Below are positions 8,301 through 62,876 of a stretch of DNA of 64,000 nucleotides, in pieces (the stretch's first letter is position 1; the number at the start of each line of letters is the position of its first letter). Made by a program: the position numbers and the translations under genes. Under the pieces are notes generated by a model. It worked only from the letters and a program-made list of their open reading frames with translations. It had not been told where the DNA came from and did not search any database. Source of the stretch: Brachypterus glaber (Eukaryota; Arthropoda; Insecta; Coleoptera; Kateretidae). The stretch lies in contig OY294046.1 of NCBI GenBank assembly GCA_958510825.1, forward strand, positions 3,596,001-3,660,000. Reading direction: 5' to 3'.

Positions 8301-9034
8301 TACAGGGTGATCCATAACTGGCATGCCAAAATTTAAAAGGTGATTCTAGATCCAAAAATATAAAAAAAGTTCCTATAAAGGTTGGTCTGGAAATGAGCCC
8401 TAAGGGATCTAGGGCCCTTTAAAATTGTAATAAAAATAAGGTTTTTAATTAATAGCTCGGGTACCGTTTAAGCTAGAGCGGCGAGCTTTTGCATGTATAC
8501 TAGTATTAATAAGGGCAATAAGTTTATGTTAATTTATTTTTTTAATTTATCCAGAGGCGTGCCCAAACGGACAAAATATATGAGGCTTAAAACATTTTTG
8601 CCCCAACTTTTCTATGTGTATGTTTTTTGGATTTGTTGTAAAAAATATAGATTTCTAGAGTAAAAATACATATAAAATATCATATAGTGTAACACTGTAG
8701 GAGCAACCGTAATAAAAAAAAATGCAATTAAGAGGAAGTAACATTTTGTGCCAACAAAAACGTTACTTTTTAAAAGGCTATTACTCCTTTAATATTAAAT
8801 TTAGGCGTTTTGGTGTATAATACTTTTTTGCTCAGTTTTAAATGAAGAATCACCCTGCAGCATTAAAATTTTATTGGTGCTTTTTTTTGTTCCCCATTCA
8901 ATACGTCATCTTCGAAGGGCCGTAGCTCCCTTAGGGCTCATTTCCGGACCAACCTTTATAGAAACTTTTTTTCATATTTTTGGATGTAGAATCACCTCTT
9001 AAATTTCGGTACGCGAGTTCTGGAACAGGCTGTA
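8301..9034. mobile_element. D-family MITE, copy 2 (complete)
   Basis: Ends TACAGGGTGATCCATAAC and GAACAGGCTGTA. Long inner inverted repeats are GGTTGGTCTGGAAATGAG / CTCATTTCCGGACCAACC. The interior matches copies at 7.2, 44.6 and 57.9 kb. Confidence 0.75.
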
Positions 9035-9592
9035 CCAAGGGACTAAACTGGCTGTTTTAGTCCCGCTGCATGAGTGTTTCCTGAGCGAAACAGAAATGCA
9101 AGGGACTATAATAGCCACGTTTAGTCCTGAGATATATATACTATTTTTTGCAAAGCCAAACATAATTTAGGTAGGTAGATAAAATTAAAAACCATGCGTC
9201 CAAAATCGGTTGTTTTATTTTCGTAATATAATCAAGATACCTGTAAATTGCGAAAAGTCAGTTTCACGGCTATCGCGATTTCAATTGTTTTTTAATATGG
9301 TTGACACAAACGTCAAAAAAATGGAAGAAGATGATAAATTTTAAGTTATGTATAAATTTTTATAACAATGTTATTTTTAAAGGTTTTCTTTGTTAAAATC
9401 AAATTGGTTTGAATCGCTAATTTATTACAAAACATCACCAAACCTAATTTTTGAACCATCAAAGCACATAGTAAGAGAATATTTTAATATTATCAAGGTT
9501 GCCGTGATTTTTATTCCCTTGGGAGAAAAACGGCAAGTTTAGTCCCGAAAATGAAAGCGTAAAATTAAGTTTTAGTCTGGTCGTGCAAAAAA
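9034..9592 (+). mobile_element. A-family palindrome-plus-TIR element, copy 1
   Basis: Palindrome at about 9034-9150: GGGACTAAACTGGCTGTTTT opposite an imperfect complement ending CGTTTAGTCC. It closes TATACTATTTTTTGC, followed by a body ending GTCTGGTCGTGCAAAAAA. Body interior matches copy 2 at 14.4-14.9 kb closely. Confidence 0.7.
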
Positions 9593-9804
9593 TTATTCAT
9601 TTACCGGGGGGAACAATTTTTAAAGTAAATGGAAAGCATTTTTTAAGTTTTATTTGGTAATCAACCTAACCCAAAATAAAGTAAATAAATTTTAAATTAA
9701 AAAAAAGTTCATTCATTTATCCAGGCGCTCTTAAAAAATACATCACAAAAATTGGATGTAACTTAATACACTTTTTTTTAATGGACATAATATTTATAAG
9801 TATA

Positions 9805-10248
9805 TACATGGTGATTCAAAAAAATTTTTAGTGTTAATTTCGACCCTTTAAAAATCCTGTTTTCATAATCTAAAAATCATTTCCAAAATAATTTTTCTCG
9901 ACGAATCTGAAAACGTAACCGAAAAAAAAAATAAGTTTCTAAAAAAAGGGTGATTCTTAAAAATATTCTTTTTCAAAAAGAAAAAATCTAAAAATATTCT
10001 AAACATTTTGTTTTTTGCATTTTTTTATAGGACGTGCGGTTTGGCTCTCACGCCCTTAAAAATATGTTTTATATATATTTTTTTTTAACCCACCCTAATG
10101 TACGCCCTGTAATATTTTGCACTTTTTAAGAGATATTTTCTGACAAAGTGTGGTCTTAAAAATTTCGGAATGTATTTTCAGATTTGGAAGTTTTTATTTT
10201 TACAGGGTCTAAATTAATACTGAGACAAGTTAATTGTATCACCCTGTA
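9805..10248. mobile_element. Possible CAGGGTG-type MITE
   Basis: The left end ACATGGTGATTC and right end GTATCACCCTGT are inverted, each next to TA. The interior is AT-rich. Weak. Confidence 0.35.
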
Positions 10249-10450
10249 TTTGTGTATGTTTTACAATTAAAATTTATCTTCACTATACAAAATTGATCCT
10301 AATAAAGGGGGGGTGGGTTACCCCGTCACGAGTCTCACTCGAAAATTTCAGAGTTACAAATTTCAGATATATCAAAAAAATGTACCAGGGCCGACAAAGG
10401 TTTCCCGTAGAGTCCTTGCTATATTTTAAAATTTTCGAAAAACGAATACG

Positions 10451-10725
10451 GTTGGGTTGGCAACATACAAAAGCCCATCTCTTGACGTTTTGCGTACAAA
10501 TGTCAATGTCGATTTAAAGTTTAATTTTTTACAAAATTTTGATTTGGGTTAGTTAGTTTTTTAAATTTTAGAGCAAAATAGAAAAAATTGTATAAAGCAC
10601 TCGTTTCATAACACATTTTTAGAGCACTAGTGCTTTAGAAAACTCGCCGCAAGCGGCTCGTTTTCTAAACTTGTACTTGTGCGCTAAAAACGTATGTTAT
10701 GAAACTAGTACTTTAATATACTATT
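10451..10725 (-). mobile_element. B-family element, copy 1 (truncated)
   Basis: Carries the GGGTTGGCAACA block, TTTAGAGCAAAATAGAAAAA and the palindrome with CTCGCCGCAAGCGGCTCG centre, ending ACTTTAATATACTATT. The distal body end and about 190 bp of interior are missing compared with copy 3. Confidence 0.7.
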
Positions 10726-10964
10726 AATGAGCTGACATTTTAACAAAAAATAGACCTTTTAATGGGTGGCCTGTGAGATTTGATACTTTAGGAACTTAAA
10801 ACTAATCTAACTATAGGAAAAATTATTTAATTGTCATAAAAATAAATAAAATAGGAATTATAGTATCTAAACCACACAGAGAAACCTGGTACATTTTTTC
10901 AATGCAAAGTGTAACATTATAATGGTATTCAAAAAACACGATTTTTTGAAAATTTTAATTCTTC

Positions 10965-11572: not shown

Positions 11573-12474
11573 AGGGGGTCCGATCAGGGGGCCGAAATGG
11601 AACAAAAATTTTATGGAACAGAGTATGGATAGCAACTATTTTGAAAAAATTCATGTTACATAGAATTTTTGACATTTTTGTCAGAAATAAATCAAATTAC
11701 AATTTATAAGAAAAAATATCTTTGTCTACAACTGCTTTAGAATGTAAGCAAATACACACACTTTTCAAACACAGAATGACTCCATTCTAGCTCTAGATAC
11801 GGTATGAATATTCCGTATCAAGTGTTAGAATGAGCACATGTAGTGCCATCTCTTGTTTATAAAAGTAAACAAAACTGTAGCAAAATTAGCAAAAATATAT
11901 ATATTTTACCATGAAATATTGAATAATTTAATGCAATTTAAAGTTTTGCGTTAAAATTACATAAAGTTTATTAGTTTTTCTTAATATCTAACCAGTTTTT
12001 TATCAATTTAGTTCAAAAATTAAAACTTTTCCATCTATTGTTAAATATTTAAGCCTGTCACAACAATCTGAAATAACCTTCAATTTTTTAATTATAACTT
12101 GTAAATATGTGCTAAAATTAAATAAAAATCTTTTTTAAGTGCTGATTTGATAAAATTATTAAATAACATTGATTGCTTTATTTAAAAATATGTGTTTTGT
12201 TGCATTTGCAATGTCGAGTCACAAAAAACATTGTTTTTAACCTTGTCCGCAGGTTAAAGCCATACAGTATTTCATATTTGCAGTCGAAGAAAAAGTATAG
12301 TCTACAACACGTATGGAATAGTCATTCCGCGCTAGGTATATTTTCTTATAAATTGTAATTTGATTAATTTATTGACAAACACGCCAAGAAAAATTGTAGC
12401 TTAATTTTTTTTTACTATCTATACTCTGTTCCATAAAATTTTAGTTCCGTTTCGGCCCACTGACCGGACCCCTA
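11573..12474. mobile_element. MITE (Q) holding a C-family insertion
   Basis: Inverted ends of about 58 bp. The left has GGGGGTCCGATCAG, GGGCCGAAATGGAAC and GGAACAGAGTATGGATAG; the right is the complement (CTATACTCTGTTCC ... TTCCGTTTCGGCCC ... GGACCCC). The C-family copy at 11719-12340 lies inside it. Confidence 0.7.
11719..12340 (-). mobile_element. C-family palindrome-plus-TIR element, copy 1
   Basis: From GTCTACAACTGCTTTAGAAT (distal end) to the palindrome start CTACAACACGTATGGAATAG. The outer half of the palindrome is lost. The apparent 61-codon frame inside is a shadow found in every copy of this repeat. Confidence 0.7.
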
Positions 12475-12778: not shown

Positions 12779-12785
12779 TGGGCGA

Positions 12786-13100
12786 AAAAAAAATTCTACT
12801 GCCCAATAAAATGCTAGCTTACATATTATCTACCGTTGTCAAGGCTTGTTTACCATAGCAACCAATAAAATAATTTATTGCTGACCGTTGCTAAGCGTTG
12901 TTTATTGACGACAGCCAATAATGAAAAAAAAATTAAGACAACTACTTTGGACTTTTTTCAACTTAAATGTCAAACTGACAGCTATCTCAAAATAATTTTT
13001 AAACTATATTTTTAACTGATATTTGAAGTTACCAGCTTTAGGTAGCAGAAAAGTATTGTATGCACCACGTGTGCTAACTGTCTTAAGTATTCTCGACTGA
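12786..13100 (-). mobile_element. L-family element, copy 1
   Basis: Body from TTCTACTGCCCAATAAAATG to AGGTAGCAGAAAA (inverted), then half of a palindrome (GTATGCACCACGTGTGCTAA ... TTCTCGACTGA). Matches the L copy at 34.07-34.46 kb in reverse. Confidence 0.65.
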
Positions 13101-14137
13101 TTTTTGAAACTATTTTTGCATTTTTTTATCATGAAACTTCAAGAAAATATGAAAAAAGCGGACGTTTAGAGCAAAGGGAGTAAAGAGGGCAAAAACTAAT
13201 ATTTTTGGTGGTTTACTGGTTTATAATTTATTGTAGTCCAAACCACGGGTCTGTAAAAATATAAACAGTATACTTTTTAAACTGTGAAATGGCCGTGGAT
13301 AAAGTATAGTATTCTACTCGCGTATAAAAGCTATTAATCATTCGGGTGATTAGGCCACTCGCCTATCGGTCGAGACCAACGAACTAACAACTCTCTAGAA
13401 TACGCATACCGTTAATATAAAGTATCGCCAACATCTCGGTTTGTTTGTAAACAAATAGTAGGTATATTCAGGCCTGAACAATAACAATTACTAGTAACTG
13501 TTATTGTTGTCTCTGTTAGAACAAAGCTGTGCGAGTAAGACAGACAAATGTATATGTTGGCTACGTTTTTTTCAGTTTTTACAAATGAAATGCCTATTCT
13601 AGAGTTATTAATTCGTTGGTCGAGACCCAAAATTCACCCTCGTTGATTAATAGCAATTATCATACACTCGTTGAATAATATACCATTTCAACATTATCTT
13701 TTTTGAAAATTCCGAATATTTTGACGTTTAGTTTCTTTAGGAATAAAAAGATTGCACTGGTTTGGTGCAATTGTTGATGATAGGGTCACTCCATCAAGCC
13801 TCGGCCGCTGGAGTGACCCTAGTTGATTAAGCTTGCCAACACCACAGAAAAAAAGTTTATAGTCAATTTCAGTGCTGCCAAAACAAACCAAAACGACTTT
13901 TTTTACATATATATCTATATACAACATGTTTACCTAACAATTGGACATGCGCCTTCGCATAAATATGCAAACTAAAAGGGGGAAATTTGAAAAATAAATT
14001 CGGTTAATCAAAAATAATTTTTATCAGAAAATTCCTTGAACACGACAGTTTTTATTTTAAATTTAGCATATCTTTATATAAATACATATTTATATAAACA
14101 TAAAAACTTTATTTTTTATAGTTTTTAATTTCTTATG
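13101..14137. other. Non-coding region with small hairpins
   Basis: No supported gene. A hairpin at about 13479-13513 (AACAATAACA / TGTTATTGTT) and another at 13786-13822 with 12 bp perfect arms AGGGTCACTCCA / TGGAGTGACCCT around GCCTCGGCCGC. Confidence 0.45.
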
Positions 14138-14322
14138 AATAGTGACATCCAGTCTAAGAGCTGGTGACCATTTTTATTTCATTATTTGCTCCCAGCTGTA
14201 TTTTATATGTCTTAAAGTACATTCAAATTAAGCTATTTGCAAATCGCCAGGTCCTAGATCGGGTTCCTTTGGGTGCTAGAAGCTCCAAAAAGGTGGTGAA
14301 ATAGGGTCCAAATATAGTTATT

Positions 14323-14884
14323 TATATACCAAGGGACTAAACTGGCTGTTTTAGTCCCGCTGCATTAGTGTTTCCTGAGCGAGGGAAACAGAAATGCAAG
14401 GGACTAAAACAGCCAAGTTTAGTCCTGAGGTATATACACTATTTTTTGCAGGACCAAACATAATTTAGGTAGGTAGATAAAATTAAAAACTACGCGTCTA
14501 AAATCGGTTGTTTTATTTTCGTAATTTAATCAAGATGCCTGTAAATTGCGAAAAGTCAGTTTCATGGCTATCGCGATTTCAATTGTTTTTTAATATGGTC
14601 GACACAAACGTCAAAAAAATGGACGAATATGATAAATTTTAAGTTATGTATAAATTGTTATAACAATGTTATTTTTAAAAGTTTTCTTTGTTAAAATCAA
14701 ATAAATTGGTTTGAATCGCTAATTTATTACAAAACACCACCAAACCTAATTTTTGAATGAGCAAAGCACATAGTAGTATAATATTTTAATATTATCAAGG
14801 TTGCCGTGATTTTTATTCCCTAGGGAGAAAAAAGGCAAGTTTAGTCCCGTAAAATTAGGTTTTAGTCTTGGTCGTGCAAAAAAT
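14323..14884 (+). mobile_element. A-family palindrome-plus-TIR element, copy 2
   Basis: Complete copy. The palindrome starts TATACCAAGGGACTAAAC and closes GTCCTGAGGTATATACACTA. The body TIR is TTTTTTGCAGGACCAA (about 14442) opposite TTGGTCGTGCAAAAAA (to 14884). Confidence 0.75.
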
Positions 14885-14888
14885 ATAT

Positions 14889-16007: not shown

Positions 16008-17433
16008 ACGAGAAGTTTTCTTTGAAACGGTGTCCCACACTTTAAGTTTGAAGCCTTGTAAGCTGAGATATTTACATTCAAAAATTCTGTCATACCGAGA
16101 AGCTAATCTTGAATGGGCATTAAGTTTTCGTGACTTGCCAACGCAAACCAAAAGTTAATCCTGTTAGTAGGATGTCTTGGCATTATAAAACCATTTCTGA
16201 GGTGCTTGGTTTTGGAAGATAATGGACTTTATTCCCCAAAAATGACCATGGTCGAATAGTTTTTCATTTTATACTGTTTTAGCTTACTCTATATAAATGT
16301 TGATTAGAGAATTTAAATCCATTCACAGAAATGGTCCAAAGATGTCCATTTCAGAAAATAGTATTGCTTGGTTTGGCTTTTTGCAACTTATTTTCTCAAA
16401 AAATATGCATATTAGTGTATCAATTAATGACAAATTATTATTTTTCTATTTTGCGACTCTTATAAGCTCATAATCACACGCATTTTGCGTGTTCTTTTAG
16501 GCTCATAAGAGGTCTGTACTTTTTGTTCTTTTGGGTTGGCAACAGACCTGGCCTATCGCTTGACGTTTTCCGTGCAAATGTCAATGTCGCTTTAAAGTTG
16601 AATTTTCTACAAAATTTTGTGTTTAGGTTATTTTTACCATGTTAAAATTGTGGCTTGGTTAATTGCAGTAAAAAATAGAAGAGATGACTATGAAATATAT
16701 ATAAAATATCATTTATTCTTAGAATTTTAAACATGGTGTAAACTGTAATGCCAATCCAAAACAAAAATCCCTAAATTTAAATGTAAGTTTTTTTAAATTT
16801 TAGAGCAAAAAAGAAAGAATTGTATAAAGCAGTCGTTTTATAACACGTTTTTAGCGCACTAGTACTTTAGAAAACTCGCCGCAAGCGGCTCGTTTTTTAA
16901 ACTTGTACTCGTGCGCTAAAAACGTATGTTATGAAACTAGTACTTTAATATACTTTATTGAATAATTGTTCTGACACATTATGACAGAAATTTAATACAC
17001 TGCACAACATTTTTTTTTTAGAAAATAAGCTACTAAATATATATTCTACAAATTTTCTGAATTGAGAATTGATAGACTAGTTATATGAACATATTTCAAA
17101 TTGCTGACCAAAATTTATATAGAATAATCCAAAACAGTATAAAATAAAGGTTAATTAAGCCCACTATGGTTATTTCTGTCCATTATCTTTCGAAACCGAG
17201 CACCACTAATTTTACTGTTGATGGTTTCATAATGTGTAGACCTCCTACCAACAGAATTAACTCTTGGTTTGCGTTGGCAAGTCACTTAAACTTGATGTCT
17301 ATTCAAGCTCGGCGCGCTGAGCGTGACGACTCTTTTTTATGGATGTACTTTTAAATTTTAATATCTCGGTTCGTAGGGCACCAAATTTTAAGTGATAGAC
17401 ACCGCTTTTTAAGGAAATTTTTCGTATTTTATC
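16008..17433. repeat. Diverged palindrome P with B element in loop
   Basis: Arms about 16008-16440 and 16956-17433. Matching blocks include CGGTGTCCCACACTTTAAG opposite TTAAGTGATAGACACCG, and TTGCCAACGCAAACCAA opposite TTGGTTTGCGTTGGCAA. The arms are clearly diverged, so the palindrome is old. B copy 2 occupies the loop. Confidence 0.65.
16441..16955 (-). mobile_element. B-family element, copy 2 (full)
   Basis: From TTTTTCTATTTTGCGACTCT to ACTAGTACTTTAATATAC. Palindrome centre CTCGCCGCAAGCGGCTCG in the same orientation as copy 3 once strand is allowed for. Confidence 0.75.
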
Positions 17434-21637: not shown

Positions 21638-23038
21638 TACAGGGTGTCCGTTTTTCGACCTCAAGCATAAGAGATACAAGATGGGTTAAATTAGAAAAAA
21701 GTTGCGCATTTTTATGCTGATCAATAATCTGAAGAAATATTTGACCTGTTATTTTTTGTTTTTTAATTGTCGCAAATAAAAATAAAAATCCCGAGTTTCA
21801 TTTTTATTTTTTTTTTGAGCGAAAACCTACAAAGCTATACGTTTTTAACTGAAACATAGTTAGGGTACTTTTTTGCAAGGAATCTAAATCTGTTATATTT
21901 TCCATGGCCTTTTAGATGCAAGAGTTACAACACTTAACTTCGTTTTTTCTTATAGGCTCTATTTTAGATTTTTACATTTTTTAATACAGTTTTTTTTTCT
22001 GATTACGATAATGTATCACACGAGATGAATCAAGTCTTACACATTTTGAGCGAAATTAAAAAAATCATTTTTGCGTCCAAACGGAGGTTCGAAAATGTAA
22101 ATATTGTCAATGTGACATTGCCACATGCGCGCATGCGTGAGATCGGCATTTAGATCTACAATGGAGATCTCTACAACTAGAATTATAAAACAAAAGACGT
22201 CTACCCTATCTCTATCTCATTTGTGCTACACTTTCCAGCCAGCCAAATAAATACTGTATTTGTTTGGTTGGCCGGAAAGTGTGGCACTGAGCGGCACGAA
22301 CGAACATAGCTAATGTGAATCTGTAGAATAAGATAATTCTACTGAAATTTAGATGGCGCCAGTAATTTCTTTAATAAAAATAATATAGTTACAGTTTTCG
22401 TCCGGCCAAGTAAATATTGTATTTGTTCAACAAAGAACAAATACAGAATTTGTTTGGTTGGGTGGAAGTGGGAGTGTATGTATGTCTTTTTGATAATCTA
22501 AATGCCGAGCTCACGCATTGGAGTAGTGGGCAATGTCACATTGCCAATGTTTACAGTTTAAAATCTTACCTTCGTTAATGTAATTGCTTCGTTGTTTCCA
22601 AAGCACTCTGCGCAAAAATATTTTTTTAATTTCGCTCAAAAAGTAGGAGTTGACCATCTCGTGTGATACATCATCGTAATCAGAAAAAACTGTATTCAAA
22701 AATGTAAAATTCCAAAATGGTGCCCATAAGAAAAAACGGAGTCAAGTTTTGTAACTCTTGCATTTAAAAGGCCATGAAAAATATGATAGATTTAGATTCC
22801 TTGCAAAAAAGTACCTAACAATCTTTAAGTTAAATACGTCTAGCTTTGTCGATTTTCGCTCAAAAAAATAAAAACGTAACTCAGAATTTTTATTTTCTTT
22901 GCAATAATTAAAAAACAAACAATGACAGGTCAAATTTTTTTTCAGATTATTGATCACCATAAAAATGCGCAACTTTTTCTCTAATTTAACCGATCTTGTG
23001 TCTCTTATGCTTGAGGTCGAAAAACGGGCACCTTGCAT
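21638..23038. repeat. Fold-back palindrome I in Chip intron 6
   Basis: Arms about 21638-22155 and 22496-23038. The outer ends are ACAGGGTGTCCGTTTTTCGA and TCGAAAAACGGGCACCTTG, and the inner ends GATCGGCATTTAGAT and ATCTAAATGCCGAGC. The loop contains an H-family MITE (22158-22490). Confidence 0.75.
22158..22490. mobile_element. H-family MITE, copy 1
   Basis: AATGGAGATCTCTACAACTA start, AAAAGACGTCTACCC and GGTTGGCCGGAAAGTG blocks as in copies 2 and 3 at 54.7 and 55.5 kb. It lacks one arm of the central hairpin found in those copies and its right end is altered. Confidence 0.7.
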
Positions 23039-26601: not shown

Positions 26602-27126
26602 TAGTATATTAAAGTACTAGTTTCATAACATACGTTTTTAGCGCACGAGTACAAGTTTAGAAAACGAGCCGCTTGCGGCGAGTTTTCTAAAGTACTAGTG
26701 CGCTTAAAACGTGTTATGAAACGAGTGCTTTATACAATTTTTTCTATTTTGCTCTAAAATTTAAAAAAAGCTACATTTAAATTGATGACTGATTTAGGGA
26801 TTTTTGTTTTGGATTGGCATTACAGTTTACACCATGTTTAAAATTCTAAGAACAAATGTTATTTTGATATATTTTATAGTCATCTCTTCTCTTTTTTACT
26901 GCAATTAACCAAGCCACAATTTTAACATGGTAAAAATAACCTAAACACAAAATTTTGTAGAAAATTCAACTTTAAAGCGACATTGACATTTGCACGGAAA
27001 ACGTCAAGCGATAGGCCAGGTCTGTTGCCAACCCAAAAGAACAAAAAGTACAGACCTCTTATGGGCCTATAAGAACACGCAAAATGCGTGTGATTATGAG
27101 CTTACAAAAGTCGCAAAATAGAAAAA
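26602..27126 (+). mobile_element. B-family element, copy 3 (complete)
   Basis: Starts TTAGTATATTAAAGTACTAG. Palindrome to about 26736 with centre GAGCCGCTTGCGGCGAG. Body TIR TTTTTTCTATTTTGC (about 26738) opposite GCAAAATAGAAAAA at the end. Lies in Chip intron 2. Confidence 0.8.
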
Positions 27127-28766: not shown

Positions 28767-29400
28767 ATAGTATATTCTATAACTAGTATGGAATAGACTA
28801 TTCCATACTTGTTTTAGACTATACTTTTTCTTCGACTGCAAATATGAAACAATGTATGGCTTTAAACTGCGGACAAGGTTTAAAACAATGTTTTTTGTGA
28901 CTCGACATTGTAAATGCAACAAAATACATATTTTTAAATAAAGCAATTAATGTTATTTAATAATTTTATCAAATCAGTACTTAAAAAAGATTTTTATTTA
29001 ATTTTAGCACATATATACAAATTATAATGCAAAAATTGAAGGTTATGTCAGATTGTTGTGACAGATATCAGGTTTAAATATTTAACAATAGATAGAGCAG
29101 TTTTAATTTTTTGAACTAAATTGATAAAAAACTGGTCAAATATTAAGAAAAACTAATAAACTTTATGTAATTTTAACGCAAAACTTTAAATTGTATTAAA
29201 TTATTCAATATTTCATGGTCAAATATTTTTGCTAATTTTGTAACAGTTTTCTTTACTTTTATAAACAAGAGATGGCACTACATGTGCTCATTCTAACACT
29301 TGATAAGGAATATTCATACCGTATCTAGAGCTAGAATGGATTCATTCTGTGTTTGAAAAGTGTGTGTATTTGCTTACATTCTAAAGCAGTCGTAGAAAAA
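28767..29400 (+). mobile_element. C-family element, copy 2
   Basis: ATAGTATATTCTATAACTAG start, short palindrome (TATGGAATAG / CTATTCCATA), body TIR TTTTTCTTCGACTGC opposite GCAGTCGTAGAAAAA. Complete body; palindrome centre deleted compared with copies 4 and 6. Confidence 0.78.
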
Positions 29401-33237: not shown

Positions 33238-34073
33238 AATAGTATATTATTTACCAAGTGAGAGAAGTTTAACATTTTTGACCTGCGTCAAATTGCGGGA
33301 TGAGCGCGCTAGCGCGAAGCCCGCAAGACGCGGTCTAAAATGTTAAAACTTCACTCACGTGGAAAATATAGTATTTTTTTCACTACCAGTACAATTAATT
33401 AGCTATTTATTTATTTAACTTAAATTTAATGAAAAAGCTTATAAATTTAAAAACTCACGCTGGCCGTTCGCGGCCATTAAAAAAACAAATGAATAACTTG
33501 ACATTTCTGGCAGAAATTTTCTGGTGATATGCTAAAATTATTAAGTTAGAAAGTGTTTCCGTGTTAAGTGTAATAAAATATATAAAAATGGAAAGTGAAA
33601 TGCAAAGTGATGATTCTAGTACTCCCCCAGAAATAAGGGGACAGGCGAAAACTTTGAGGGAGAATCTATTGCCTCAAAAATCAATATATGGGGGTTGTAC
33701 CTCTAGTAATCTATGATCCTTACGGTAATATATGGGTTGTATAATCTATGGTTGAATATGATGGACCAATAATTTTCACTTTTCGAAGTGTTTTTTGTAA
33801 AACATGTTTTATAGGTACTAATTTAGTTAATATTTTTTAACTTCATCAATCATGCAATAAATAAATTTGGTGCCTAAAGACACTTGTAAATAGCAATGTG
33901 ATTTAATAATTAAGTGAAACGTCAGATGCCTAAACAGCTGAATAAAAAATTCATTATTAACCATGGTGCAATTTCATTATTTTTAGAACCTCTGACGTCA
34001 TAGGTAGAGAAATAATATTTCTACCAATGAAAAGAACAGTAATAAAGATGTCCCTTTAGGCTGGTGGTGAAAA
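33238..34073 (+). mobile_element. U-family palindrome-plus-TIR element
   Basis: AATAGTATATTATTTACC start. The palindrome (AAGTTTAACATTTT / AATGTTAAAACTTC around GCGCGCTAGCGCG) runs to about 33372. Body TIR TTTTTTTCACTACCAG (33373) opposite CTGGTGGTGAAAAA (34061). Inside is a short coding start at 33590. Confidence 0.72.
33590..33716 (+). pseudogene. Possible Crypton-like recombinase N-terminus
   Basis: ATG after AAAATATATAAAA reads MESEMQSDDSSTPPEIRGQA, KTLRENLLPQKSIYG, then stop. The acidic/serine start followed by a LLPxKS motif resembles, from memory, the first residues of Crypton-type tyrosine recombinases found in many insects. Only about 40 codons remain; no catalytic residues. Confidence 0.35.
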
Positions 34074-34461
34074 ATAATATATTATGCACCTAGTATGCGA
34101 ACTAAGTCTTTAGTGTTCGAGTCTGAAGTTTTTTTGCTGAGACGGAGTCGAGGCAATCAGTCGAGAACACTTAAGACAGTTCGAATACGTGGTGCATATA
34201 CTATTTTTTCTACTACCTATAGCTAGTAACTCCAAATATGAGTTAAAAATAAAGTTTAAAAATTATTTTGACATAGCTGTCAGTTTGACAAGTAATTTGA
34301 AAAAAGTTAGTAGTTGTCTTAAATTTTTTTCATTATTGGCCGTCGTAAATGCTTAACAACGGTCAATAATAAATGAGTTCACTGATTTTATTGGTTGCCA
34401 AGGTAAACAAGCCTTGACAACGGTACATAATATATAAGCTAGCATTTAATTAGGTAGTAGA
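34073..34461 (+). mobile_element. L-family element, copy 2
   Basis: AATATATTATGCACC start. Palindrome closes GGTGCATATACTATT at about 34208. Body TIR TTTTTTCTACTACCTA opposite TAGGTAGTAGA (34451-34461). It directly abuts U on the left and C copy 3 on the right. Confidence 0.72.
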
Positions 34462-35118
34462 GCGGAAAGTTTGTCATACGAGCCGGCAGGCGAGTATGAC
34501 GGTACCGCGAGCGCGGAATGACTATTCCATACGTGTTGTAGACTATACTTTTTCTTCGACTGCAAATATGAAACACTGTGCGGACAAGGTTAAAAACAAT
34601 GTTTTTTGTGACTCGACATTGCAAATGCAACAAAACACATATATTTAAAATAAAGCAATTAATATTATTTAATAATTTTATCAAATTAGTACTTAAAAAA
34701 GATTTTTATTTAATTTTAGCACATATTTACAAATTATAATGCAAAAATTAAAGGTTATGTCAGATTGTTGTGACAGATATCAGGTTTAAATATTTAACGA
34801 TAGATGGAGCAGTTTTAATTTTTTGAACTAAATTGATAAAAGACTGGTCAAATATTAAGAAAAACTAATAAACTTTATGTAATTTTAACGCAAAACTTTA
34901 AACTGCATTAAATTATTCAATATTTCATGGTAAAATATACATATTTTTACTAATTTTGCTACAGTTTTCTTTAGTTTTATAACAAGAGATGGCACTACAT
35001 GTGCTCATTCTAACACTTGATACGGAATATTCATACCATATCTAAAGCTAGAATGGATTCATTCTGTGTTTGAAAAGTGTGTGTATTTGCTTACATTCTA
35101 AAGCAGTCGTAGAAAAAA
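34461..35118 (+). mobile_element. C-family element, copy 3
   Basis: Enters the palindrome at CGGAAAGTTTGTC (the outer arm has been lost at the join with L); body from TTTTTCTTCGACTGC to GCAGTCGTAGAAAAA. Confidence 0.75.
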
Positions 35119-35375: not shown

Positions 35376-35864
35376 ATAGTATATTAAAGTACTAGTTTCA
35401 TAACATACGTTTTTAGCGCACGAGTACAAGTACTAGTGCGCTAAAAACGTGTTATGAAACGAGTGCTTTATACAATTTTTTCTATTTTGCTCTAAAATTA
35501 AAAAAAACTTACATTTAAATTGATGACTGATTTAGGGATTTTTTTTTTGGATTGGCATTACAGTTTACACCATGTTTAAATTTCTAAGAACAAATTATAT
35601 TTTGATATATTTTATAGTCATCTCTTCTCTTTTTTACTGCAATTAACCAAGCCACAATTTTAACATGGTAAAAATAACTTAAACACAATATTTTGTAGAA
35701 AATTCAACTCTAAAGCGACATTGACATTTGCACGGAAAACGTCAAGCGATATGCCAGGTCTGTTGCCAACCCAAAAGAACAAAAAGTACAGACCTGTTAT
35801 GGGCCTATAAGAATACGCAAAATGCGTGTGATTATGAGCTTATAAGAGTCGCAAAATAGAAAAT
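35376..35864 (+). mobile_element. B-family element, copy 4
   Basis: Complete body; the GC-rich palindrome centre is deleted (GCGCACGAGTACAAG joins directly to TACTAGTGCGC). Ends CGCAAAATAGAAAA directly against V. Confidence 0.77.
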
Positions 35865-36132
35865 AGTATATTACGAACCGAGTACGCGAATCTAGTTTTT
35901 AGTGCACGAGAATGTACTGAAAATGGTGCGTATACTATTTTCCCTACGACCTAACACCTAAACATCCAAAAAACGCAAAAATTGTCTAAAAATTAATTTG
36001 TGAATTTGAGGTTATGTGTTTACTCATTCTCTGACAGAAGATATGAAAAATGATCTGATTTTCACTTTCCGACCGCTGTCATGGCAACGGGTGGAAAATG
36101 AGCACTATCTACTAACTAGGTCGTATGAGAAG
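35864..36132 (+). mobile_element. V-family palindrome-plus-TIR element
   Basis: TAGTATATTACGAACCGAGT start, palindrome closing GGTGCGTATACTATT. Body TIR CCCTACGACCTAAC opposite TAGGTCGTATGAG. Short (about 270 bp). Confidence 0.6.
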
Positions 36133-36356: not shown

Positions 36357-37333
36357 ACACAGGCCCACAAAAAAAAATTGTGTGTCTTGGATTCCAATAT
36401 GATATTCCTATGTATTTTTTCCTGCTGAAACCGAATCCGTAACCCGTTTAACCCCTACACGTCAGAATTTTGACATAACCTCAAAAAACACTCGAAAAAC
36501 TACTGAAACCGCTAAAATCATCTACTCCATACCACTTTCACCCCCTTCCTCCAAATTCGTAATTTCGTAACCCCATAATGCCCTAACCTCGGAATACCAT
36601 TACTCCATAACCTCAAAACCCCGTAACCTCATTAAGTAGAAAAATCTGGTTCGGGAAAACAGAACAATTACGTGAAATTTTCTTGTAGAACATAGTTATG
36701 AATAAGTAACTGTATAACCCTAAAATCCCATCACATCTCCTAACCCCTTCACTCTGTAACCCCATATATTATAACCTCTTAACCCCATCATCCTATTCTG
36801 TGGAGAAGTCCGGTTTTCAAAATCATAAGAGTTTTGTGAGTGAAGTCATGAATCAAGGTCTACTTCATTATTTTTTTAACCGGACTTCTCCACAGAATAG
36901 GATAACGGGATAAAGGGGATATAGTATATGGGGTTACGAAGTGAAGGTATTTTGAGGTTATGGTGTTGGGTTATAGAGTTACTTGCCTATGACTATGTTC
37001 CACAAAAAAAACTGAAGAATTTTTTCTGTTTTCCAAACTAGATTATTCTACTTAATGAGGTTACGGGGTTTTGAGGTTATGCGACTATGGTATTATGAGT
37101 TTAGGGGATTATGGAGTTCTGGGGTTATAGAATTAGCAATTTGGGGACAGGGGGGTGACAATGGTATGGCATAGATAATTTTAGCGGTTTCAGTAGTTTT
37201 TCGGGTGTTTTTTGAGGTTATGTCAAAATCCTGACGTGTAAGGTTTAAACGGATTGCCGAGTCAGTTTCAGCGGGAAAAAATACATAATATTATTGGAAT
37301 CCAAGACTCAGAATTTTTTTTGTGGGCCTGTGT
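36357..37333. repeat. Fold-back palindrome X with CCCCxTAAcCTC interior
   Basis: Ends ACACAGGCCCACAAAA and TTTTGTGGGCCTGTGT. Both arms (about 475 and 450 bp) contain strings of short units like ACCCCATAACCTC. The hinge has CCTATTCTGTGGAGAAGTCC and its complement. Confidence 0.75.
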
Positions 37334-44852: not shown

Positions 44853-45896
44853 TTTTTCTATTTTGGGACTCTTATAAGCTCATAATCACACGCATTTTGT
44901 GTTCTTATAGGCATATAAGAGGTCTCTACTTTTTTTTCTTTTGGGTTGGCAACAGACAAAAGTCTATCTCTTGACGTTTGCTGTGCAATTGTGAACGTCG
45001 GTTTAAAGTTTAATTTTCTACAAAATTTTGTGTTTAGGTTATGTTTTACCGTGTTAAAATTGTGGCTTGGTTAATTGCAGTGGAAAAGAGAAGAAATTAC
45101 TATAAAATATATCAAAATAATATTCGTTCTTAGAATTTTAAACATGGCGAAAACTGTAAAGACCACTTTACACGGAGCAATTTGTACGCAAGTTTGATGC
45201 TATGCAAGTTTGCTGCCAATTATAGCATGAGGACAATTGGACATAGATTTGCCTTTTCACGGAGCAAGTTGTACGCAAGTTTGGTGCTATATATTGCAAG
45301 GTAAACAGTGCTGCCAACCAGACAATTTTGACGTGTCTCTGCGTTTGTTGACAAAAACATAACCTAGCATTTGCTTTTTTTAAGGAAGTTTTTTAGTTAG
45401 ACAGACCGACCTATTATTAATTATAATAATTATTAACATGTGCTGTTGCTACTATATTAGTAAAATGAAATCGATTCGGTAACTTTTTTTCCAGGTACCA
45501 CGAAAATAACCATAAAACTTGCGTGAAAATCGCCGAAAAATAGAACATGTTCTAAATAATTTGATGGCACGAAAATGGCTTCAAACTTGCCTAAAGGCAT
45601 GCGCTGTGATTGAATCATTCTTGCATAGCATCAAACTTGCGCACAAATTGCTCCGTGTAAAGTGGCTTTAATGCCAACCCGAAACAAAAATCCCTAAATC
45701 AGTCATCAATTTAAATGTAAGTTTTTTAAAATTTTAGAGCAAAATAGAAAAAATTGTATAAAGCACTCGTTTCATAACACGTTTTTAGCGCACTAGTACT
45801 TTAGAAAACTCACCGCAAGTAGCTCGTTTGGACTTTCTAAACTTGTACTCGTCCGCTAAAAACGTATGTTATGAAACTAGTACTTTAATATACTAT
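44853..45896 (-). mobile_element. B-family element, copy 5, itself interrupted
   Basis: TTTTTTCTATTTTGGGACTC to ACTTTAATATACTATAAT; interrupted at 45160-45668 by a TAA-flanked MITE. Confidence 0.78.
45160..45668. mobile_element. Harbinger-like MITE (TAA duplication)
   Basis: TAA at 45157-59 and 45669-71; the empty site CTGTAATGCC is visible in B copies 2 and 3. Ends AGACCACTTTACACGGAGCA and TGCTCCGTGTAAAGTGGCTT. The GCAAGTTTGATGCTAT unit is repeated inside. Confidence 0.82.
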
Positions 45897-50169: not shown

Positions 50170-51764
50170 CACAGGTGTCTTGAATCAAAATAAAGTTTTT
50201 TTTTCTGGCGCCAAAAACTCTCTTCACAGATTGAAAGAGGGTTGTCTGAAGAATAAAACCTGTTAATATTAAAATCCTCCCCCGAGTCCTTTTCGAGAAA
50301 ATGGGGATTAAAAAGGCTTAAATGGGCCTAAATTTAGTTTTCTAGGGATTTCATAAAAATGGCTAACTCGACGAAAAAAACTGTTCTGTTATAAAAGATA
50401 GACAAAAAAATTATCTACAAACAACTTTTTTAATGAACTCGCTAGCTCAAACCCTTACCGTTTTATAGCTCAAACAAAGTTGCATATTAAGATAGCTTAT
50501 TGTCAATCATTTTTTAAGCATGCATATTTTGGGTTTTTGTAAAAAAACTCAAAAACCACAATTCCAACAACAAAAATAGTTATTACATAAAAGATTCTTA
50601 GTTAAATTCAACACAAACCAACATTTTGTTTATCTTAATAGCTTTAATAGATCAAGAGATATATAGCTTCAAATGTTATCGTTTTAAATTTCATGTTACA
50701 ATTTTTTCCTTCATATGCAATAAATTGGTTTTTTGTAAATATCTTAAAATCGAGTAGGTAAAAGAAAAAAAATCATATGAGTGAATTGTACTATATATAG
50801 TACAATTGGGCCCTTTTATGCAAAAAGTAGCCAACATATTAAAAAAAAGAGATAATGTCGTATACTGATCTAGAAATGTCCATACTACATTCCTACCCAC
50901 AATATTTAAATATTGTGGGTTGGTTGCTTTTTGCATAACATGGCCCAATTAGGAGTTTTTTAGAATATTTTTATTACAAACAACGTTAAGAATTAACATT
51001 TTGCTACATATTAATATTATAAAAAATTATATATATATATACAAAATTATTACAATATTTTCTTACTTTCACGAGCTATAGTTTGCAAACCAAAAGAGCT
51101 AAGTAAACAAATAAAACAGCGTTTTTTAGATAATTTTCTTAACTATTTTTTCACTCATATGATTTTTTTTCTTTTACCTACTCGATTTTAAGATATTTAC
51201 AAAAAACCAATTTATTGCATATGAAGGAAAAAATTGTAACATGAAATTTAAAACGATAACATTTGAAGCTATATATCTCTTGATCTATTAAAGCTATTAA
51301 GATAAACAAAATGTTGGTTTGTGTTGAATTTAACTAAGAATCTTTTATGTAATAACTATTTTTGTTGTTGGAATTGTGGTTTTTGAGTTTTTTTACAAAA
51401 ACCCAAAATATGCATGCTTAAAAAATGATTGACAATAAGCTATCTTAATATGCAAATTTGTTTGAGCTATAAAACGGTAAGGGTTTGAGCTAGCGAGTTC
51501 ATTAAAAAAGTGTTTGTAGATAATTTTTTTGTCTATCTTTTATAACAAAACAGTTTTTTTCGTCGAGTTAGCCATTTTTATGAAATCCCTAGAAAACTAA
51601 ATTTAGGCCCATTTAAGCCTTTTTAATCCCCATTTTCTCGAAAAGGACTCGGGGGAGGATTTTAATATTAACAGGTTTTATTCTTCAGACAACCCTCTTT
51701 CAATCTGTGAAGAGAGTTTTTGGCGCCAGAAAAAAAAACTTTATTTTGATTCAAGACACCTGTG
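50170..51764. repeat. Near-perfect giant palindrome, 615 bp arms
   Basis: 50170-50784 and 51151-51764 are almost exact reverse complements (ends CACAGGTGTCTTGAATCAAA / TTTGATTCAAGACACCTGTG). The loop is 366 bp and contains a hairpin MITE. The borders share TCCA just outside (GTCCA..TCCAAC), a possible 4 bp duplication. No coding. Confidence 0.85.
50804..50950. mobile_element. Hairpin MITE in the palindrome loop
   Basis: AATTGGGCCCTTTTATGCAA and AAAGTAGCCAAC opposite GTTGGTTGCTTTTTGCAT and AACATGGCCCAATT. Confidence 0.7.
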
Positions 51765-51811: not shown

Positions 51812-52613
51812 TTTTCCTACGATCCTCTATGAAAATGGCATTTAGCACACTCTTTTGTCCTTTAGAAAACACCTCATATCGCACTAGTTTGATATTTTTA
51901 TATCACACTCGTGTGATATTTTTGTATGGAGGTTTGCCTTATTTTATTTAGATATTTACCTCGTAGATTCTACGAAATTTATTCACCTTGTTTTATAAAC
52001 TATTTTCCACCTTTAACCACAGCCTTTTATATCTTTTAAGTGTTTTAATCCAAATATTTCTGGTTTTCATGTCAAAAATAGAAACTATAGTTATAACGTT
52101 ACTATTTTGACCATTACTGTCTAGTCTAGACAGTCTAGATCTTATGAAAATTACTTATTTTTTTATTTAGTTAACTTACATAACATAAAAATATCAAAAT
52201 ACACAGTATTTTTCTTATGAAATGTAAAACAGTACAATTTTACTGTCTTATATGGCAGCATTACCACAGTAATCTAATTTAATAAGCAAACTCAAGTTTG
52301 CATTTATTTAGGAATAGGCAACCCATTAAACAGCTATGTATTGTATTAAATATAAAACCAAGAAAACCAAAGCTTAATGAAAATCATATTTTCTGTTTGA
52401 CATACCTACATATATAAATTTGTATGCTATTTATAATTATTTTGTGTTTTTGCATTTCTTAAAAATTAATACAAATTAGAAATTTTTAAAATAGGGCCCT
52501 TTATATTTTTTCGGGATCGTAGGAAAAATAGTGTACATAACTCGTTGGAAAGTGTATTTCATACACTCGCGTGAAATATGTCACTTTCCACACTAGTTAT
52601 GTAATATACTATT
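51812..52613 (-). mobile_element. T-family palindrome-plus-TIR element
   Basis: Body TIR ATTTTCCTACGATCC (51811) opposite GGATCGTAGGAAAAA (52514). The palindrome beyond it (TAACTCGTTGGAAAGTG / CACTTTCCACACTAGTTA around ACTCGCGTG) ends AATATACTATT at 52613. Confidence 0.72.
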
Positions 52614-57825: not shown

Positions 57826-57860
57826 GCTCAAATTAATAATACTGTAAATATATATATATA

Positions 57861-58581
57861 TACAGGGTGATCCATAACTGGCATGCCAAAATTTAAGAGG
57901 TGAAATATAAAAAGTTCCTATAAAGGTTGGTCCGGAAATGAGCCCTAAGGGATCTAGGGCCCTTTAAAATTGTAATAAAAATAAGGTTTTTAATTAATAA
58001 CTCGGGTACCGTTTAAGCTAGAGCGGCGAGCTTTTGCATGTATACTAGTATTAATAAGGGCAATAAGTTTATGTTAATTTATTTTTTTAATTTATCCAGA
58101 GGCGTGCCCAGACGGACAAAATATATGAGGCTTAAAACATTTTTGACCCAAACTTTTCTATGTGTATGTTTTTTGGATTTGTTGTAAAAAATATAGATTT
58201 CTAGAGTAAAAATACATATAAAATATCATATAGTGTAACACTGTAGGAGCAACCGTTATCAAAAAAAAATGCAATTAAGAGGAAGTAACATTTTGTGCCA
58301 CCAAAAACGTTACTTTTTAAAAGGCTATTACTCCTTTAATATTAAATTTAGGTGTTTTGGTGTATAATACTTTTTTGCTCAGTTTTAAATGAAGAATCAC
58401 CCTGCAGCATTAAAATTTTATTGGTGCTTTTTTTTGTTCCCCATTCAATACGTCATCTTCGAAGGGCCGTAGCTCCCTTAGGGCTCATTTCCGGACCAAC
58501 CTTTATAGAAACTTTTTTTCATATTTTTGGATGTAGAATCACCTCTTAAATTTCGGTACGCGAGTTCTGGAACACCCTGTA
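57861..58581. mobile_element. D-family MITE, copy 4 (complete)
   Basis: TACAGGGTGATCCATAACTG to GAACACCCTGTA; the best-preserved copy, 721 bp, with ~100 bp inverted ends. Confidence 0.8.
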
Positions 58582-59160
58582 TATACGCCTCAAATAAATT
58601 ATAGATTCTAAAATTATATAAGTTTCGTTTTTATCAAATGAAGATTATTCTTAATTTTGACAGTGGACATAAATAGAACTCACCCGGTATAACGTTAGCA
58701 GGTATATTGTTTTCTCAAAAAAAAATCAATATCTGTTTAAATTAATTTTTTTTCCGTTTTTTTTTTTATTTATTTTTTATTTAGAAAATGTTTATTTTTT
58801 GCAATAGCAATATTTTATAAAAGGTTCATTTAAATTTAGTGCCCCAGCCTAATCTAAAACATGCCCCAAAACCAGTTTCTACTATAAGCCCCTGTACCCC
58901 GCACCAGTGCTCTGAAGAGATCTTCTTCAAGCTATGTGTGCTATTTCCCTTTGTGTGTGTGAGTGCATTTCAGCAATTATAACCCTCTACTAAATGAAGG
59001 AAAAAAATGAGCACCCCCAAATAGGGGACACAACGTTCGCTAATTTTAGATCTTGAGCATCTATTCAAAGAAAGAGTTTCTGATATAATTTAACAAAAAT
59101 GGCAGAATTTTACTTTTTTACAATAAATCATATTTGACATGAAATTTTGAAGGTGATTTC
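58582..59160. other. AT-rich, no gene
   Basis: Nothing recognised apart from short T-runs and a small (TG)n at about 58950. Confidence 0.4.
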
Positions 59161-60064: not shown

Positions 60065-60132
60065 TGTCCCTCTTACTTGGACGCATCCTGCCTTACGACG
60101 TTTTAGTCGTTGAGTTGAGCAACCGCATCAAT

Positions 60133-60413: not shown

Positions 60414-60677
60414 GCAACCGCATCAATAAAAATCTTACTATGGTAAAAAAATTCTCATCCTAAAGGAGATGATATCTTCAAACTCATTTTGAGCTAAGTT
60501 TTATCTTGTAATAAAAATATTTTACATACAAAATTGATTTTTTTTTTGTATATAAAAATTTAATGTGACGTGCCGCATGGTGGAGGGGGGAGTCGGTGCC
60601 GGTGTGAAACTTTGTGACTAGGGGAGAGGGGTCAAAATTGCTAAAAAAGCGTGACATACTTTATGGACGTCTCCTAA

Positions 60678-61120
60678 GACTTCCTAAAATAAAAAAACCT
60701 TGTCCGAATGTAGAGGATCATTTTTTTGCAAACTTTTTTTTTATAAAACTGCAAAATATGATTTTGGTAATATTTATGCCACGTTTCAGGTTTATAAAGA
60801 ATTAATTTATATTTGTCACGTGAGACACGTTCTTTGAGTTTGGTCTAAATTTCAATTTTGACCAGCACTTTGTACAATACCAATAACAAAAGACACGCGA
60901 GATGATGGATAACAGGACATTTTGAACAAACTTCCATTCTCCTGCCGTAAGCAGGATCGTTGTCGTATACGATAAAAATTTAAATTCTCGAGATATAGTC
61001 CAGTCAAATAACGAAAAACTCCCATGTTAAATTGCATTAAATGTACACAGGCTGATATTTTAAAGGGTAGTAGTGGATAGTAACGGAACACTCCTGTTAG
61101 TTTTTCACCGGGTGATTTTG
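60678..61120. other. Nothing recognised
   Basis: No gene, hairpin or known repeat seen. Confidence 0.4.
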
Positions 61121-61366
61121 TTTATGTAATTTTAACGCAAAACTTTAAATTGCATTAAATTATTTAATATTTCAAGGTAAAATAAAAATAATTTTGCTAA
61201 TCTTGCTACAGTTTTCTTTACTTTTATAAACAAGAGATGGCACTACATGTGCTCATTTTAACACTTGATACGAAATATTCATACCGTATCTAGAGCTAGA
61301 ATGGATTAATTCTGTGCTTGAAAAGTGTGTGTATTTGCTTACATTCTAAAGCAGTCGTAGAAAAAG
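61121..61366 (+). mobile_element. C-family distal fragment, copy 5
   Basis: TTATGTAATTTTAACGCAAA to GCAGTCGTAGAAAAA; the palindrome and proximal body are absent. Directly followed, in mirror orientation, by copy 6. Confidence 0.72.
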
Positions 61367-61370
61367 ATAT

Positions 61371-62076
61371 TTTAGAATGTAAGCAAATACACAACTTTTC
61401 AGAGACAGAATTAATCTATTCTAGCTCTAGATACGGTATGAATATTCCGTATCAAGTGTTAGAATGAGCACATGTAGTGCCATCTCTTGTTTATAAAATT
61501 AAAGAAAACTGTAGCAAAATTAGCAAAAAAATATTTATTTTATTTTTATTGAATAATTTAATGCAATTTAAAGTTTTGCGTTAAAATTACATAAAGTTTA
61601 TTAGTTTTTCTTAATATTTGACCAGTTTTTTATCAATTTAGTTAATAAAATTAAAACTGCTCCATCTATTGTTAAATACTTAAACCTGGTATCTGTCACA
61701 ACAATCTGACATAACCTTCAATTTTTGCATTATAATTTGTAAATATGTGCTAAAATTAAATAAAAATCTTTTTTAAGTACTGATTTGATAAAATTATAAT
61801 AATTATTAAATAATATTAATTGCTTTATTTAAAAATATGTCTTTTGTTGCATTTACAATGTCGAGTCACAAAAAACATGGTTTTTAACCTTGTCCTCAGT
61901 TTAAAGCCATACAGTGTTTTATATTTGCAGTCGAAGAAAAAGTATAGTCTACAACACGTATAGAATAGTCATTCCGCACTCGCGGGACCGTCATACTCGC
62001 CTGCCGGCTCGTGTGACAAACTTTCCGCTAGCGCGGAATATCGTCTATTCCATACTAGTTATAGAATATACTATTT
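61371..62076 (-). mobile_element. C-family element, copy 6 (full palindrome)
   Basis: From TTTTAGAATGTAAGCAAATA to TAGTTATAGAATATACTATT. Keeps the complete palindrome with TCATACTCGCCTGCCGGCTC and CTAGCGCGGAAT. Confidence 0.77.
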
Positions 62077-62355
62077 TCGGAGAATTTTCTGTAAAAAAAT
62101 AAGAATACGACAAATGAGCATAAGCAGCAATACATTTCTCTAGCTGTGCATAACAAACTAACGGATTCGTAACGGTTCTGAAAAAAAAAAACGGCAAAAT
62201 AGCCTACAACATTTAATTATAATTAATACAATGACGTTTGCCATTACTTTTCCAAAATAAAACGTCATGTTTGATGATTTGGGATCACTTAACCTAATTA
62301 GGTTTATTTAATTTGACGGACAAAAAAATAGATAACACAGGCCAACAATTTTTTA

Positions 62356-62876
62356 ATAGTATATTAAAGTAATAGTTTCATAACATACGTTTTTTGCGCA
62401 CTTTAGAAAACTCGCCGCAAGCGGCTGGTTTTCTAAACTTGTACTCGTGCGCTAAAAACGTGTTATGAAACGAGTGCTTTATACAATTTTTTCTGTTTTG
62501 CTCTAAAATTTAAAAAAACTTAAATTTAAATTGATGACTGATTTAGGGATTTTTGTTTTGGATTGGCATTACAGTTTACACCATGTTTAAAATTCTAAGA
62601 ACAAATGATATTTTGATATATTTTATAGTCATCTCTTCTCTTTTTTATTGCAATTAACCAAGCCACAATTTTAACATGGTAAAAATAACCTAAACACTAA
62701 ATTTTGTAGAAAATTCAACTTTAAAGCGACATTGACATTTGCACGGAAAACGTCAAGCGATAGGCCAGGTCTGTTGCCAACCCAAAAGAACAAAAAGTAG
62801 AGACCTCTTATAAGACCTATAAGAACACGCAAAATGCGTGTAATTATGAACTTATAAGAGTCGCAAAATAGAAAAA
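62356..62876 (+). mobile_element. B-family element, copy 6 (flipped palindrome core)
   Basis: AATAGTATATTAAAG start and CGCAAAATAGAAAAA end as in copies 3 and 4. The stem-loop core reads TAGAAAACTCGCCGCAAGCG, the reverse complement of that in copy 3. Confidence 0.78.

What the first reader, a model, noticed from the sequence alone, without database searches (positions are those of the whole stretch)
9034..62876. Seven unrelated repeats share one palindrome-plus-TIR architecture
Families A (9.0, 14.3 kb), B (10.5, 16.4, 26.6, 35.4, 44.9, 62.4), C (11.7, 28.8, 34.5, 39.2, 61.1, 61.4), L (12.8, 34.1), T (51.8), U (33.2) and V (35.9) have different bodies but the same plan. One end usually starts (A)ATAGTATATT (TATACC in A, AATATATT in L2) and forms a 70-140 bp imperfect palindrome, often with a GC-rich centre such as GCCGCTTGCGGC, CGCGAGCGCG or GCGCGCTAGCGCG. 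It closes with a TA-rich run ending ACTATTTTT. The body starts right there, and its two ends form a short inverted repeat: TTTTTTGCAGGACCAA/TTGGTCGTGCAAAAAA (A), TTTTCTATTTTGC/GCAAAATAGAAAA (B), TTTTTCTTCGACTGC/GCAGTCGTAGAAAAA (C), TTTTTCTACTACCTA/TAGGTAGTAGA (L), TTTTTCACTACCAG/CTGGTGGTGAAAAA (U), TTTTCCTACGATCC/GGATCGTAGGAAAA (T), CCCTACGACCT/AGGTCGTATG (V). Ordinary MITEs have no such one-sided palindrome. This looks like a superfamily of non-autonomous elements with a distinct transposition mechanism.
Basis: partly seen in the sequence, partly recalled or inferred. Interest (0 to 1): 0.85.

Follow-up and report, generated by a model that had tools for sequence, protein, structure and literature searches.

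The report
Rolling-circle-type elements with giant hairpins
Several kinds of short repeat in what looks like an insect genome carry one large DNA hairpin at one end and most likely spread by copying a single DNA strand, like a known group of rolling-circle jumping genes, but with a bigger hairpin than I found described for that group.

Summary
Of the 19 listed copies, 15 carry the one-sided 3' module (14 with a strong fold, module 57-144 nt; V35 folds poorly), 3 are cut off inside it (C11, C34, L12) and C61a lacks it. The hairpin lies inside the mobile unit: all 6 B copies end beyond it at the same place (B16 one base short) in different flanks. B44 has two paralogous empty sites matching its joined flanks over 20 contiguous bases (14 left, 6 right), CTCCTT|TAATAT, without target duplication. 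Six of the seven families share a terminal signal, ACTNG, then 15 nt ending ..AATATACTA (13 hits, 0.05 expected); A resembles it loosely. The layout (5' T-run and short repeat; its inverse internal at the other end, followed by a hairpin; T-rich targets, no duplication) is that of non-autonomous Helentron/Helitron2 elements (DINE-1/HINE), not of MITEs. The hairpin differs: published stems are 5-11 bp, here 23-51 interrupted pairs. A mismatch recurs at one stem position, and one copy has its inner palindrome inverted. No enzyme and no host genome could be examined, so membership is inferred. Verdict: new variant of a known kind.

The parts
14315..14883 (-). A2, full element; 3' hairpin 14315-14441
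   Evidence: fold z -15.3 (on 14326-14441); diverged empty site in the other arm of the host inverted repeat
9034..9592 (-). A1, element with hairpin; last ~11 nt of the 3' end missing or diverged, 3' inner repeat degenerate
10460..10723 (+). B10, 5'-truncated B with intact 3' hairpin
16442..16953 (+). B16, full element; hairpin 16818-16953; 3' end one base short of the other B copies
26602..27125 (-). B26, full element; hairpin 26602-26739
35377..35863 (-). B35, full element, hairpin tip deleted; hairpin 35377-35477
44854..45895 (+). B44, full element with a nested MITE at 45160-45668; hairpin 45752-45895
   Evidence: empty sites; nested MITE
62357..62875 (-). B62, full element whose inner palindrome is inverted relative to the other B copies
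11721..12340 (+). C11, C copy truncated inside the hairpin (3' limit approximate), near the centre of a host palindrome
28768..29399 (-). C28, full element, shortest 3' module (57 nt)
34465..35116 (-). C34, C copy truncated inside the hairpin at its junction with L34
39188..39916 (-). C39, full element, 3' module 104 nt
   Evidence: diverged empty sites
61121..61365 (-). C61a, 5' part of a C element only, head to head with C61b; no palindrome
61366..62073 (+). C61b, C element with altered 5' end; 3' module 61942-62073
12795..13100 (+). L12, L copy truncated inside the hairpin (3' limit approximate)
34075..34464 (-). L34, L element without its 5' T-run; 3' end sits in the 5' T-run of U33
51812..52611 (+). 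T51, full element; hairpin 52528-52611
33240..34073 (-). U33, full element; hairpin 33240-33375
35864..36128 (-). V35, element with weak, non-significant hairpin; 3' end sits in the 5' T-run of B35
13289..13687 (+). W, orphan ~400-nt palindrome ending in the same terminal signal; no matching 5' repeat found in the window

Best explanation
These are several families of non-autonomous rolling-circle transposons of the Helentron/Helitron2 type (HINE or DINE-1-like). Orientation: 5'-TTTT + short repeat - body - inverted short repeat + AAAA - large hairpin - AATATACTA-3'. Shown: the B borders, the hairpin inside the unit, no target-site duplication at the B44 empty sites, mostly T-rich targets, head-to-tail nesting in one another's 5' T-runs (two cases), and a 3' signal with 15-nt spacing shared by six families. 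Inferred: an autonomous relative elsewhere in the genome supplies a Rep/helicase (perhaps with endonuclease) that nicks at the 5' T-run, peels off one strand, meets the hairpin as the signal to stop, cuts after ..ACTA and joins the strand into a TT site; the two short repeats may pair to end the round. The large hairpin would be an enlarged terminator; passing through it as single-stranded DNA would explain copies cut off inside it, the shorter tips in B35, C28 and C39, and the inverted inner palindrome in B62.
For: All 6 B copies end at the same 3' place (B16 one base short) and 5 begin at the same T-run, in different flanks. B44: joined flanks equal the paralogous sites near 8.7 and 58.3 kb over 20 contiguous nt, no duplication. 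A2: the 3' end predicted from the shared signal fits the empty arm to within 1 nt at the junction, while leaving the palindrome behind as host DNA leaves it (127 nt) and the far flank unmatched. Flank repeat of 0-2 bases in 11 of 12 copies tested; the exception is A2 (TATT). Base after ..ACTA is T in 11 of 13 B, C, L, T, U and V copies with this end (exceptions B16, B26). Shared signal: 13 matches with at most one mismatch, 0.05 expected, 0 of 100 shuffles reach 13; 12 are element ends, one is W; C39, A1 and A2 are not among them. Across 8 representatives 28 of the 36 stem positions 9-44 from the 3' end use two or more pair types, while position 16 is G and 19 is C in all 8. V abuts B, and L abuts U, in the same orientation within a T-run. 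Published DINE-1/HINE layout: subTIRs of 11-15 bp, 3' one internal and followed by a stem-loop, TT insertion, no target modification. In the reconstructed Helitron Helraiser the 3' hairpin is a transposition terminator, and truncations and read-through occur (passages).
Against: No Rep, helicase or endonuclease was seen: 8 of the 9 reading frames of 110 codons or more were scanned against Pfam and none matched such a family; shorter frames were not scanned, and the host genome could not be searched. Published 3' stems are 5-11 bp and the 3' repeat lies about 20-60 bp from the end; here it lies 57-144 bp away. A 5' hairpin like that of Helitron2 is not clear: the first 60 nt fold weakly, in B downstream of the repeat, in C with a weak stem touching its last bases. 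V35 has no significant hairpin. The C39 empty sites are only about 75% alike and fix the border to 2-10 nt. Around the 20 matching bases of B44 both flanks have gaps against the paralogues, 38 nt on the left and two stretches on the right. V35, L12, L34 and C11 lack a full 5' T-run.
Confidence: 0.77

Rival explanations
1. They are moved by another single-strand (HUH-type) enzyme that is not a Helentron Rep/helicase, for example a one-tyrosine Rep or one derived from a hairpin-ended single-stranded DNA virus; the large hairpin would then be an origin or telomere-like structure resolved by nicking.
For: Hairpin far larger than in the Helentron descriptions I read; B62 carries the inner palindrome in the opposite orientation (alignment score 39.5 inverted, 21.0 direct; the three other copies compared with B26 the reverse), recalling the flip and flop forms of parvoviral ends (recalled, not tested); recurring mismatch at one stem position, 6 of 8 representatives.
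Against: T-run plus internal inverted repeat plus 3' hairpin and TT target are all described for Helentrons; one inverted copy can also arise by ordinary template switching in a palindrome; no comparable palindrome at the 5' end.
Confidence: 0.14
2. Cut-and-paste MITEs (bodies with terminal inverted repeats) that happen to lie beside separate palindromic repeats.
For: The repeats look like terminal inverted repeats, and the window is full of symmetrical palindromic repeats.
Against: Same palindrome and same junction in every B copy and in the intact C copies; empty sites lack palindrome and body together; no target duplication, while the MITE nested in B44 shows TAA.
Confidence: 0.04
3. Cut-and-paste transposons with strongly unequal ends, as in Foldback or Galileo-like elements (names recalled), whose target duplication has decayed or is hidden in T-runs.
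For: One-sided large palindromes could be unequal ends; a 1-2 base duplication within T-runs cannot be excluded at every site, and A2 has TATT on both sides.
Against: The B44 empty sites leave no room for a duplication beyond T-run ambiguity; the ACTNG-15nt-ACTA signal is found only at the palindrome end.
Confidence: 0.05

Closest known systems
DINE-1 / HINE (non-autonomous Helentrons)
   Same: Short repeat at the very 5' end, its inverse internal at the 3' end and followed by a stem-loop; TT target, no duplication, variable Ts; no coding capacity (PMC4067079, PMC2374699, PMC7492417, passages).
   Different: Published 3' stems 5-11 bp; here 23-51 interrupted pairs. No clear 5' inverted repeat next to the 5' repeat. 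The ACTNG-15nt-ACTA signal and the recurring stem mismatch are not in the passages read.
Helitron2 (PMC3627910, PMC5148889, passages)
   Same: Asymmetric terminal inverted repeats, 3' one just upstream of a hairpin; 5' T.
   Different: Helitron2 also has a 5' hairpin, unclear here, and a 3' repeat 20-30 bp from the end, here 57-144.
Canonical Helitron (Helitron1)
   Same: 3' hairpin; CTAG occurs near the 3' end.
   Different: Canonical ends are TC and CTRR with A|T insertion and a 16-20 nt palindrome; here CTAG lies 15 nt inside the end and the target is TT.

Membership tests
Helentron/HINE | 11-15 bp repeat at the 5' end with inverted copy internal at the 3' end | tested here: met
   (10-16 bp, some with mismatches)
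Helentron/HINE | short palindrome (5-11 bp stem) near the 3' end | tested here: not met
   a palindrome is in the right place, but its stem has 23-51 pairs; the size criterion fails
Helentron/HINE | insertion in TT or T-rich sequence without target modification | tested here: met
   B44; 11 of 12 copies; less precisely A2 and C39
Helentron/HINE | variable number of terminal Ts | tested here: met
   4 to 7 Ts where the T-run is intact; V35, L12, L34 and C11 have fewer
Helentron/HINE | palindromic 5' repeat or adjacent 5' inverted repeat | tested here: inconclusive
   weak or displaced folds only
Helentron/HINE | autonomous partner with Rep/helicase/endonuclease and the same ends | not testable with these tools
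   host genome not available:
Helitron2 | 5' terminal hairpin involving the 5' repeat | tested here: inconclusive
   not in A, B, L, T, U or V; a weak stem touches the last bases of the repeat in C
Cut-and-paste MITE | target-site duplication and symmetrical terminal inverted repeats at both borders | tested here: not met

The most novel reading that the evidence does not exclude
A distinct lineage of rolling-circle transposons whose 3' terminator has grown into a telomere-like hairpin of 60-150 nt (possibly 400 nt in W), read by the enzyme through a fixed mismatch at the ACTNG box, and replicated through fold-back so that its inner part inverts, grows and shrinks, as in hairpin-ended single-stranded DNA viruses.
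Probability: 0.15. Interest if true: 0.75.

Novelty: new variant of a known kind. Interest (0 to 1): 0.46.

Why it matters
[quoted passage not shown] A set of families sharing one terminal signal, with much enlarged hairpins, a recurring mismatch, natural truncations, shortened tips and one inversion, gives a way to ask how the 3' hairpin of Helentrons stops transposition. For a canonical Helitron this was tested by deleting the hairpin of Helraiser (PMC4778049, passages); I know of no such test for a Helentron (recalled, not searched).

Tried and rejected
Viral-contig scan with the B hairpin core: no match; with the generic 3' signal: 2 matches, taken as chance and not read. Host identification by the Sina-like protein: one relative at E 1e-20 or better, 30% identity. 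Rfam: no family at gathering scores. tRNA: none. A general scan for inverted repeats beginning with TTTT finds many more than shuffles (28 against 0.4 for exact arms), but most are symmetrical palindromic repeats, so that count alone does not support the finding. Motif-led scan for further families: besides known copies several sites had strong folds, but by eye the predicted stems do not reach the motif; W was found by the pattern search, and no 5' repeat was found for it. A hairpin of this size in print was looked for in searches; no listing showed one, but I read only some of the listed papers, and Repbase and most subscription papers are not in the library. In one search I set the B44 start 2 nt too far in, which added two Ts. 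The pattern was written from these same ends, so its count shows sharing, not independent discovery. Stem positions are aligned from the 3' end without gaps, with two C copies among the 8 rows, so the variety of pair types is no formal covariation test.
Full report
Setting. The window is AT-rich (GC 0.28-0.35) and holds one long open frame, a Sina-type E3 ligase (Sina zinc finger and RING), a LIM-binding-protein fragment, and many repeats. I read it as an insect genome, by inference; the species is not known.

Observation. Aligning copies shows what moves. In family B, 5 copies begin at the same T-run and all 6 end at the same place beyond the palindrome (five in ..AATATACTA, B16 one base short), in different flanks, so the palindrome is part of the unit. 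In C, three copies end ..AATATACTA (C28, C39, C61b); C11 and C34 stop inside the palindrome, and C61a has only the 5' part. In L, L34 is whole at the 3' end and L12 stops inside the palindrome. Of 19 listed copies 15 have the 3' module, 3 are cut within it and 1 lacks it.

Hairpin strength. For 15 modules the DNA fold was compared with 60 dinucleotide shuffles each: z from -3.9 to -15.3 in 14, +0.5 in V35. The folds hold 23 to 51 pairs with interruptions. Against 150 windows of equal length, done for 13 of the 15 copies, 0-9 were as stable as the module in 12 copies, 99 in V35. The 5' ends inside the element were matched by 9-144 of 150, with four of five B copies on the stable side (9-20); the 5' flanks were ordinary except T51 and U33 (5 and 4 of 150) and, weakly, B44 (12 of 150), the U33 flank being the L34 hairpin. 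The one-sidedness therefore holds, except that V's hairpin is weak and B has a modest second hairpin inside its 5' end.

Borders and targets. B44 lies in a repeat with paralogues near 8.7 and 58.3 kb; its joined flanks equal both empty sites over 20 contiguous bases, 14 left and 6 right of the junction, with the insertion inside a run of three Ts and no duplication. Beyond these 20 bases there are gaps, 38 nt on the left and two stretches on the right, before the match resumes. For A2, the shared 3' signal predicted an end 11 nt beyond the one I had set; with it, the joined flanks fit the other arm of the host inverted repeat to within one base at the junction (63 of 72 aligned bases, other small gaps nearby), and leaving the palindrome as host DNA leaves it unmatched. 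C39 gives a consistent but blurred picture. Of 12 copies tested, 11 show 0-2 matching flank bases and A2 shows four (TATT), in AT-rich DNA. The base following ..ACTA is T in 11 of the 13 B, C, L, T, U and V copies with this end; B16 and B26 deviate. V35 ends exactly in the T-run that opens B35, and L34 in that of U33, in the same orientation. As a control in the same window, a 509-bp MITE inside B44 (45160-45668) is flanked by TAA on both sides, and other B copies show its empty site.

What the families share. Bodies show only short AT-rich matches (best E 4e-5, T/U, opposite orientation); L and V are clearly alike in the 3' region. The intact ends of B, C, L, T, U and V carry ACTNG (ACTAT in B62), then 15 nt (14 in C39) ending ..AATATACTA (AATATATTA in L34). 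A2 has CTTG and then 15 nt ending ATAACTA, a loose likeness; A1 lacks the end. The pattern with at most one mismatch hits 13 places, 0.05 expected; twelve are element ends, the thirteenth is the end of a ~400-nt palindrome, W; C39, A1 and A2 are not hit. In the folds of 8 representatives (two from C), base 8 from the 3' end is unpaired in 8 of 8, and base 18 (T in all 8) is unpaired in 6 of 8 (paired in C28 and V35), while base 16 is G and paired in all 8 and base 19 is C in all 8 and paired in 7; at 28 of the 36 positions 9-44 two or more pair types occur. So the structure is kept while its sequence is not, and the exception is one box.

Dynamics of the hairpin. C28, C39 and C61b look like one palindrome with none, one or two further palindromic tiers at its tip; B35 lacks the tip. 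In B62 the inner palindrome is inverted between unchanged outer arms: it scores 39.5 against the reverse complement of B26 and 21.0 against B26, the three other copies compared the other way round. This is one copy of five.

Mechanism. The 5' T-run and repeat, the internal 3' repeat, the terminal hairpin, TT targets and lack of duplication are the published plan of DINE-1/HINE elements and their Helentron partners (PMC4067079: abstract, section 6 and passages; PMC2374699: passages; PMC7492417: passages), and of Helitron2 (PMC3627910, PMC5148889: passages). In DINE-1 the stem-loop with 7-11 nt stems is proposed as the replication terminator. In the reconstructed bat Helitron Helraiser the 3' hairpin is a transposition terminator, and truncated and read-through products occur, more often when it is deleted (PMC4778049, passages); copies cut off inside the hairpin here (C11, C34, L12) would fit such truncations. 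I infer the same role here. Other insect examples read in passages have short stems (9 bp in Calliphora, PMC3630058) or canonical ends (PMC4344730).

Limits. No host genome, no autonomous copy, few copies per family, folds from energy rules only. Membership in Helentrons is therefore a likely assignment, with one published criterion, hairpin size, not met and the 5' hairpin unclear.

Noticed in passing
13289-13687: Very long (~400 nt) imperfect palindrome that ends in the same 3' signal as the elements; no matching 5' repeat found in the window.
   Followed up: partly
45160-45668: 509-bp MITE inside B44, with inverted ends and flanked by TAA on both sides; looks PIF/Harbinger-like (label recalled).
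   Followed up: partly
61121-62073: Two C copies joined head to head at their 5' ends, the second with an altered 5' end, like a fold-back product.
   Followed up: partly
11609-12438: C11 sits close to the centre of a large host palindrome, which would be a hairpin loop in single-stranded form.
   Followed up: partly
21710-22964, 30068-31350, 36417-37279, 50338-51596: Large symmetrical palindromic repeats of 0.9-1.3 kb, a different kind from the elements of the finding.
   Followed up: no
5112-6446: 444-codon frame with two Sina zinc-finger stretches and a Sina RING; only one relative at E 1e-20 or better in the protein collection.
   Followed up: partly
7200-9013 and 57858-58584: Repeat family shared by the two places (97-99% alike over stretches of 250-300 bases), with related pieces beside C39 and B44.
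   Followed up: partly
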